DNA of 64,000 bases from Lachnospiraceae bacterium (GTDB lineage: Bacteria > Bacillota > Clostridia > Lachnospirales > Lachnospiraceae), in assembly GCA_022794255.1 (NCBI GenBank), contig JAAWEL010000089.1:24757-88756 (forward strand), given 5' to 3'. Below the pieces are notes generated by a model. That model was not told the DNA's origin, made no database searches, and saw only the letters and a program-made list of their open reading frames with translations. Position numbers and translations under genes: made by a program. Below, one piece after another: positions 23,896-24,769 of this stretch. Each line of letters begins with the position of its first letter. Within the stretch, counting starts at the first letter, position 1.

Positions 23896-23935
23896 TGCAA
23901 CACAATTGGAAATTGTGTTGCACTGAGAGTTACTT
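23896..23935 (+). repeat. left inverted repeat of switch 1
   Basis: TGCAACACAATTGGAAATTGTGTTGCACTGAGAGTTACTT. Confidence 0.95.
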
Positions 23936-24015
23936 AAAATATTAGTAAATATCAGGAAATAATCTTGACAAGGTAGATACAGTCAAATAGCAAAAGAATA
24001 GGAAGATACCTCAAT

Positions 24016-24594
24016 ATGCAAAAAACACATCCTATCAAAGATGCAAAAGACATTCAAAAACTAAAGCAATATTATTTAGACAGACAGCAAATACGGAATT
24101 ATACTCTTATCACTCTTGGGATAAATACTTCACTGCGAATTGGAGATCTACTGCTTTTAAAATGGGAAAATGTTTATGATTTTTGTAATCGATGTTACTA
24201 CAAACATTTGAAAGTCTGTGAACAGAAAACAGGGAAGAATACCCTGATTGCCTTGAACAGAGAATCTTTGTTAGCTCTGAAAAGTTTGAAAGAATCTATA
24301 TCCCCTGTATTAGAAAAAGATTATTTATTTAAGAGCAGAGAAGGAATAAACCGCCCTATCTGCCGTACACAGGCATTCCGCATTATCAAAAAAGCGGCTG
24401 ATTCGCTTCATATCGAAGGAACCATCAGTTGCCATTCTCTCCGGAAAACCTTTGGCTATCATGCCTGGCGAAAGGGGGTTCCACCTGCTGTTATCATGAC
24501 TATTTACAATCATTCCTCTATGGAAGTCACGAAGCGTTACCTGTCCATCGACCAAGATGACAAAGATCAGGTCTTTTTGGAATTAAATCTGTAA
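24016..24594 (+). CDS. small tyrosine recombinase (invertase) of switch 1
   Basis: 192 aa; SLRIGDLLLLKW (Arg I), CHSLRKTFGYHAW (HxxR), YNHSSMEVTKRYLSI (His and Tyr). Confidence 0.93.
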   Translation: MQKTHPIKDAKDIQKLKQYYLDRQQIRNYTLITLGINTSLRIGDLLLLKWENVYDFCNRCYYKHLKVCEQKTGKNTLIALNRESLLALKSLKESISPVLEKDYLFKSREGINRPICRTQAFRIIKKAADSLHIEGTISCHSLRKTFGYHAWRKGVPPAVIMTIYNHSSMEVTKRYLSIDQDDKDQVFLELNL

Positions 24595-24696
24595 AGCAGC
24601 TGTCTGGCCTGAATGAACCATTACTCAGTAAAAAAATTCTTAAGAAAATTCCTCCTGTTTTTCCAGAAAATCTTAACCCTTTCACCAGAAAAGAAC

Positions 24697-24725
24697 TTGC
24701 ATTAAGAAGGAAAGAGTGCTATGAT
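24697..24725 (+). promoter_or_regulatory. switch 1 promoter, currently pointing away from operon A
   Basis: TTGCAT-17 bp-TATGAT; same architecture at 52938-52966. Confidence 0.75.
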
Positions 24726-24729
24726 TACG

Positions 24730-24769
24730 AAGTAACTCTCAGTGCAACACAATTTCCAATTGTGTTGCA
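24730..24769 (-). repeat. right inverted repeat of switch 1
   Basis: Reverse complement identical to 23896-23935 over 40 bp. Confidence 0.95.

What the first reader, a model, noticed from the sequence alone, without database searches (positions are those of the whole stretch)
23896..24769. Self-contained promoter-inversion switch (element 1) upstream of capsule operon A, captured in OFF orientation
Seen: perfect 40-bp inverted repeats enclose a 192-aa tyrosine recombinase (+) and, just inside the right repeat, a TTGCAT-17-TATGAT promoter pointing right, away from the minus-strand nusG-like/capsule genes that begin at 23612. Inversion would place the promoter 4 bp inside the left repeat, reading leftward into the leader and operon A. 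Established: tyrosine recombinases (FimB/FimE, Bacteroides shufflon/Tsr-type enzymes) invert promoter segments for surface phase variation. Inference: this is a cis-encoded switch in which the recombinase travels inside the segment it flips.
Basis: partly seen in the sequence, partly recalled or inferred. Interest (0 to 1): 0.92.

Follow-up and report, generated by a model that had tools for sequence, protein, structure and literature searches.

The report
Self-carried capsule ON/OFF DNA switch
A gut bacterium of the Lachnospiraceae carries a short DNA segment holding both a promoter and the enzyme that flips it, upstream of a capsule operon; a sister copy in the same genome was assembled in both orientations, so these switches very probably do flip.

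Summary
Perfect 40-bp inverted repeats enclose a tyrosine recombinase with an intact active site and an extended -10 promoter pointing away from the capsule operon (OFF). (1) The genome has three such elements, each beside a capsule operon that starts with two loaP-like genes. (2) Element 3 was assembled with its recombinase end joined to both flanks, so both orientations existed in the source population; for element 1 inversion is inferred. (3) Rabbit-gut relatives have the same design in OFF (3) and ON (2) orientation. (4) The two repeats of an element almost never differ in the central ~7 bp (crossover signature), and the three elements have three different centres. (5) Sister species instead have recombinase-free promoter invertons (181-260 bp) upstream of several loaP capsule loci plus one unflanked recombinase, an Mpi-like trans design. 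(6) The leader holds a conserved, covarying RNA hairpin; all 17 hits outside the training set are followed by loaP. Invertible capsule promoters and recombinase-containing invertible segments are known separately; this LoaP-coupled Lachnospiraceae form with cis/trans exchange is a new variant of a known kind.

The parts
23896..23935 (+). Left inverted repeat of element 1 (recombination site; palindromic core AACACAATTGGAAATTGTGTT at 23899-23919)
24730..24769 (-). Right inverted repeat of element 1 (core 24746-24766)
24016..24594 (+). Tyrosine recombinase inside the segment, 192 aa, catalytic domain only; R41, K71, H140, R143, H166, Y175 invariant in 12 aligned relatives
24697..24725 (+). Promoter TTGCAT-17-TATGAT with extended -10 (TGcTATGAT), pointing right, away from operon A (OFF)
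   Evidence: the same extended -10 points at loaP in the ON elements L042 and L043
24665..24692 (+). Conserved block upstream of the promoter (AGAAAATCTTAACCCTTTCACCAGAAAA), shared by elements 1-3 and by recombinase-free invertons of relatives; role unknown
23746..23817 (-). Leader RNA motif R1 (AAACCGG - covarying hairpin - GGGGUUAUA) of operon A
   Evidence: no Rfam family at gathering cut-off
23690..23697 (-). GGCGAAGC element conserved in most of the loaP leaders
22836..23612 (-). loaP-like gene 1 of operon A (NusG N-terminal domain plus KOW)
   Evidence: NF033641 122.3 bits, cut-off 125
22172..22750 (-). loaP-like gene 2 of operon A, lacking the C-terminal KOW region
126..22126 (-). Polysaccharide operon A (Polysacc_synt_2, glycosyltransferases, initiating sugar transferase, heparinase-like, PEP-mutase-like)
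24789..50619 (-). Polysaccharide operon B; its 3' end lies 19 bp from the right repeat of element 1
50653..52013 (-). Two loaP-like genes of operon B (51204-52013 and 50653-51219)
52090..52161 (-). Leader RNA motif R1 of operon B
52176..53013 (+). Element 2: repeats 52176-52216 / 52973-53013, recombinase 52293-52871 (75% identical to element 1), promoter TTGCAA-17-TATGAT 52938-52966 pointing right (OFF)

Best explanation
Element 1 is an autonomous invertible promoter cassette. The recombinase it encodes cuts and rejoins the two palindromic repeats, exchanging strands within their identical central ~7 bp, and so inverts the 0.87-kb segment together with its own gene. In the assembled OFF orientation the outward promoter fires away from operon A. 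In the ON orientation it would fire through the left repeat into a ~0.3-kb leader with a conserved RNA hairpin, then loaP1-loaP2 and the polysaccharide genes, with the LoaP-like antiterminator presumably needed to carry RNA polymerase through the >20-kb operon. Three such cassettes with different crossover sequences control three capsule-type operons (A, B, C), and a fourth loaP operon has a fixed promoter. Shown here: anatomy, intact recombinase, both junctions of element 3 in the assembly, ON and OFF relatives, identity of the crossover region within pairs, RNA covariation. Inferred: inversion of element 1, promoter activity, antitermination, capsule phenotype.
For: Repeats, recombinase and promoter as stated. 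Element 3: C63 1-137 is the exact reverse complement of C63 915-1051, so its recombinase end is joined to the right flank; C52 1-100 is the exact reverse complement of C63 109-208, so the same end is also joined to the operon C leader; both cannot lie on one molecule. C52 and C63 are probably neighbours: the element 1 and element 3 proteins have the same longest contig, 155,900 bp, against ~155,950 for C52 and C63 joined. The same module is ON in L042 and L043 and OFF in L047, L050, L052. Repeat pairs of 48 family members differ in the arms but almost never in the centre. Exact site cores occur in this genome only at the three elements, control pattern 0. Active site invariant, dN/dS 0.064. 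Leader RNA: 27 cells with changes on both sides, 0 of 500 shuffles reach it; all 17 model hits that were not in the training alignment are followed by a loaP-like frame on the same strand.
Against: No read data: element 1 was seen in one orientation only, and the element 3 junctions could in principle be an assembly error through the 27-bp repeat. No transcription data. 20 of 23 scorable loaP-linked invertons are OFF and only 2 ON, so ON states may be rare or conditional. The loaP-like proteins score below the LoaP model cut-off.
Confidence: 0.88

Rival explanations
1. The three recombinases act in trans as shared invertases on all three elements, so element 1 inverts but is not functionally self-contained although it carries a recombinase.
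For: Half-sites of the three elements are nearly the same (AACACAA...TTGTGTT) and the proteins are 75-82% identical; close relatives appear to run several invertons with one unflanked recombinase.
Against: Three intact recombinase genes are kept, one per switch, under purifying selection; redundancy would be expected to decay.
Confidence: 0.4
2. A mobile element or plasmid-resolution cassette: the repeats are ends of an integrated unit and the recombinase is a transposition or resolution enzyme without a regulatory role.
For: The recombinase family is large and common on plasmids and satellite phages, at under 60% identity.
Against: Fixed position upstream of loaP leaders in several species; conserved outward promoter at one end; both orientations; recombinase-free versions with the same promoter end upstream of the same leader.
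Confidence: 0.05
3. A frozen switch: element 1 has lost inversion and is permanently OFF, with operon A silent or driven by read-through from operon B.
For: Only the OFF orientation is assembled; operon B ends 19 bp from the element and the scan found no intrinsic terminator between them.
Against: The 40-bp repeats are perfect while many other repeat pairs diverge in the arms; the ORF is intact and constrained.
Confidence: 0.08

Closest known systems
Bacteroides fragilis invertible capsule promoters with the master invertase Mpi, and UpxY/UpxZ
   Same: Several capsule operons in one genome, each with an invertible promoter upstream of a NusG-paralogue gene; relatives of the window have one unflanked recombinase and many small promoter invertons.
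   Different: Here the enzyme is a tyrosine recombinase, the NusG paralogue is LoaP-like with a conserved RNA leader, and in this genome each switch carries its own recombinase. Mpi is described as a single serine-type master recombinase for at least thirteen regions (PMC5903667).
Salmonella H segment with Hin
   Same: Recombinase gene inside the flipped segment (PMC5903667), together with an outward promoter.
   Different: Serine recombinase controlling flagellin; here a tyrosine recombinase and capsule.
Providencia stuartii fimbrial inverton, 844 bp, enclosing a recombinase ORF (PMC5903667)
   Same: Nearly the same size and layout.
   Different: 14-bp imperfect repeats, a fimbrial locus in Proteobacteria, detected by read signature; recombinase class not stated in the passage read.
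Akkermansia cps1 inverton (PMC13343947) and Eggerthella lenta capsule inversions (PMC13174815)
   Same: Capsule phase variation by DNA inversion in gut bacteria; in E. lenta the inversions move capsule genes relative to loaP.
   Different: No recombinase is mentioned in the Akkermansia main text; E. lenta inversions are megabase-scale with no adjacent recombinase.
Clostridioides difficile RecV switches
   Same: A tyrosine recombinase inverting regulatory segments in Clostridia.
   Different: RecV acts on several separate switches such as flagellar and cwpV (PMC5903667), not capsule.

Membership tests
Tyrosine recombinase (PF00589) | Catalytic domain with R-K-H-R-H/W-Y | tested here: met
   PF00589 88.8 bits, cut-off 27.1; R41, K71, H140, R143, H166, Y175 invariant
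FimB/FimE-type DNA invertase (NF007370/NF007371) | Score above the curated cut-off | tested here: not met
   35.0 and 36.8 bits against 221 and 222
Invertible promoter (inverton) | Inverted repeats flanking an outward promoter next to a regulated operon | tested here: met
Invertible promoter (inverton) | Both orientations observed | tested here: inconclusive
   Met for paralogous element 3 in the same assembly and across species; not seen for element 1
LoaP antiterminator (NF033641) | Score above the curated cut-off | tested here: not met
   122.3, 79.6, 105.3, 77.7 bits against 125, though it is the best NusG-family model for all four
LoaP antiterminator | Target leader carries a UNCG-type dfn hairpin | tested here: inconclusive
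   A conserved covarying hairpin is present without a clear UNCG loop; no Rfam hit
Mpi-type master invertase system | One serine recombinase acting in trans on many promoters | tested here: not met
   Tyrosine class; a recombinase inside each of three elements. Relatives G158, G161, G011, G023, G009 have the one-recombinase layout

The most novel reading that the evidence does not exclude
Lachnospiraceae have evolved, independently of Bacteroides, a capsule phase-variation system built from a LoaP-like antiterminator pair, a dedicated leader RNA and tyrosine-recombinase promoter invertons, with a fixed-promoter loaP operon as default. Within one genus it alternates between a single trans-acting recombinase and self-contained cassettes whose distinct crossover sequences keep neighbouring switches from recombining with each other. 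In tandem arrays, read-through from operon B across element 1 may lower (OFF) or raise (ON) expression of its recombinase and so favour expression of one operon at a time.
Probability: 0.4. Interest if true: 0.8.

Novelty: new variant of a known kind. Interest (0 to 1): 0.64.

Why it matters
Capsule phase variation by promoter inversion is best known from Bacteroides. A parallel system in another dominant gut family, tied to LoaP antitermination, would bear on how phages, antibodies and the mucus niche act on Lachnospiraceae. The presence of trans-recombinase and self-contained designs among sister species gives a directly testable comparison of how multi-locus surface switches are kept independent.

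Tried and rejected
Mobile element or plasmid-resolution cassette: rejected as the main reading (position fixed upstream of loaP leaders, promoter at one end, both orientations). FimB/FimE membership: rejected by model score. Further exact recombination sites in the genome: none. Rfam match for the leader: none. Inverted copy of element 1 elsewhere in the assembly: none. First family search with the RNA model was largely circular, since 15 of its 17 strong hits were in the training alignment; the held-out test is. Literature searches combining LoaP with inversion, UpxY with Firmicutes, and Lachnospiraceae with capsule phase variation found no description of this system; the 2019 invertible-promoter paper (PMC6543533) is not held and could not be checked. 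Repeat detection failed for 33 of 81 family members: some keep a single site (e.g. L045), others none.

Full report
Observation. The 40-bp arms are perfect (44 bp with one mismatch) and 794 bp apart; chance expectation in 64 kb is about 1e-14. A mechanical flip places the -10 hexamer 4 bp inside the left repeat, reading into the leader of loaP1 (start codon 23612) from 328 nt upstream. The promoter has an extended -10 (TGcTATGAT). Each repeat is a palindrome around an asymmetric centre.

Three elements in the genome. The window lies in contig C63 of a 90-contig assembly. A search with the recombinase finds two more close copies: element 2 at window 52293-52871 (75%) and element 3 at C63:223-798 (82%). 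All three have the promoter at the end opposite the recombinase start, pointing right. Operons A and B each begin with two loaP-like genes followed by polysaccharide genes. Operon C on contig C52 has the same layout.

Evidence that inversion happens. Contig C63 begins with 137 bases that are the exact reverse complement of C63 915-1051: the right flank of element 3 is joined to the recombinase end of the element as well as to its promoter end. Contig C52 begins with 100 bases that are the exact reverse complement of C63 109-208: the same recombinase end joined to the operon C leader. One molecule cannot hold all these junctions; the simplest reading is a mixture of orientations in the sequenced population. 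An independent assembly is consistent with C52 and C63 being neighbours: the element 1 and element 3 proteins share a longest-contig length of 155,900 bp, against about 155,950 for the joined contigs. The caveat is a possible assembly error through the 27-bp repeat; no reads were available.

Relatives. A scan of species genomes gave 80 loci. In rabbit-gut Lachnospiraceae, elements with embedded recombinase stand beside loaP genes in both states: L042 and L043 ON; L047, L050 and L052 OFF. In 48 of 81 family members the recombinase is flanked by palindromic repeats. Where the two repeats differ, the differences lie in the arms and almost never in the central ~7 bp, as expected of a strand-exchange region. 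The centres of elements 1, 2 and 3 all differ (ATTGGAAAT, ATATGTAAT, ATGAATGAT). Exact site cores occur nowhere else in the genome. In G011 several invertons share a centre, so distinct centres are not a general rule.

A second architecture. In G158, G161, G011, G023 and G009, short invertons (181-260 bp inside) without a recombinase, but with the same promoter end, lie upstream of loaP leaders. Each of these genomes has one close recombinase homologue without a repeat pair around it. G007 has one such homologue and a contig that begins inside an inverton. This looks like an Mpi-type trans design. The recombinase tree needs at least two changes between embedded and unflanked states. L045, sister to embedded L042, keeps a single repeat beside its gene, so at least some unflanked genes may be relics of embedded cassettes. 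Several genomes also have a loaP operon with a fixed promoter directly at the leader (G000 C12, G158 C66, G011 C99, G009 C76), reminiscent of the non-invertible PSC locus of B. fragilis (own knowledge). Orientation census of loaP-linked invertons: 20 OFF, 2 ON, 1 mixed.

Leader. Upstream of loaP1 lies a conserved RNA motif with a covarying hairpin (27 cells with changes on both sides, 0 of 500 shuffles). The first family search is partly circular, because most of its strong hits were in the training alignment. The held-out test is clean: 17 of 17 hits not used for training (15 in the genus, 2 in G161) are followed by a loaP-like frame on the same strand. The motif occurs with invertible and with fixed promoters, so it belongs to loaP control rather than to the inverton. 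LoaP of Bacillus velezensis binds a leader hairpin and antagonises NusA (PMC12691694); by analogy the ON transcript probably needs LoaP to run through the operon. This is inference: the proteins score slightly to clearly below the LoaP cut-off. LoaP2 lacks the C-terminal KOW region.

Known and new. Invertible capsule promoters are known (Bacteroides; Akkermansia, PMC13343947), and so is a recombinase inside the segment (Hin and the Providencia stuartii 844-bp inverton, PMC5903667). The combination with LoaP, the leader RNA and the cis/trans exchange within one genus was not found in the held literature, within the stated limits. Hence a new variant of a known kind.

Noticed in passing
window 22172-22750 and 50653-51219; G000:C52:1428-2000: The second loaP-like gene of each operon has the NusG N-terminal domain but lacks the C-terminal KOW region; a possible antagonist or partner of LoaP1, loosely comparable to UpxZ. 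The operon B LoaP1 also has no recognisable KOW. In the genus, fixed-promoter loaP operons (G009 C76, G011 C99) show only one loaP frame downstream of the leader within the held sequence, while invertible ones show two.
   Followed up: partly
window 23690-23697 and 51990-51997 (minus strand): A conserved GGCGAAGC element in loaP leaders, 46-140 nt after the RNA motif; it resembles the RfaH ops element (from memory) and could be a pause or recruitment site.
   Followed up: no
window 24770-24788: Operon B ends 19 bp from the right repeat of element 1 with no intrinsic terminator found between them; read-through could cross the element 1 recombinase (antisense when OFF, sense when ON).
   Followed up: partly
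window 53075-53107; L006 960-1020: Hairpins resembling bidirectional terminators lie just outside the promoter-side repeats of elements 2 and 3, as if to end the OFF-state transcript.
   Followed up: no
L213, G000:C12:21640-22533: A further loaP operon with the same leader RNA but a fixed promoter and no inverted repeats.
   Followed up: partly
L051, L053, L054, L055: Eisenbergiella and Blautia relatives have repeat-flanked recombinases of a neighbouring clade without loaP nearby; what they switch was not examined.
   Followed up: no
L058 (KE159590.1, 1409 bp): A contig that is a head-to-head inverted duplicate of a recombinase gene; probably an assembly product of an invertible element.
   Followed up: no
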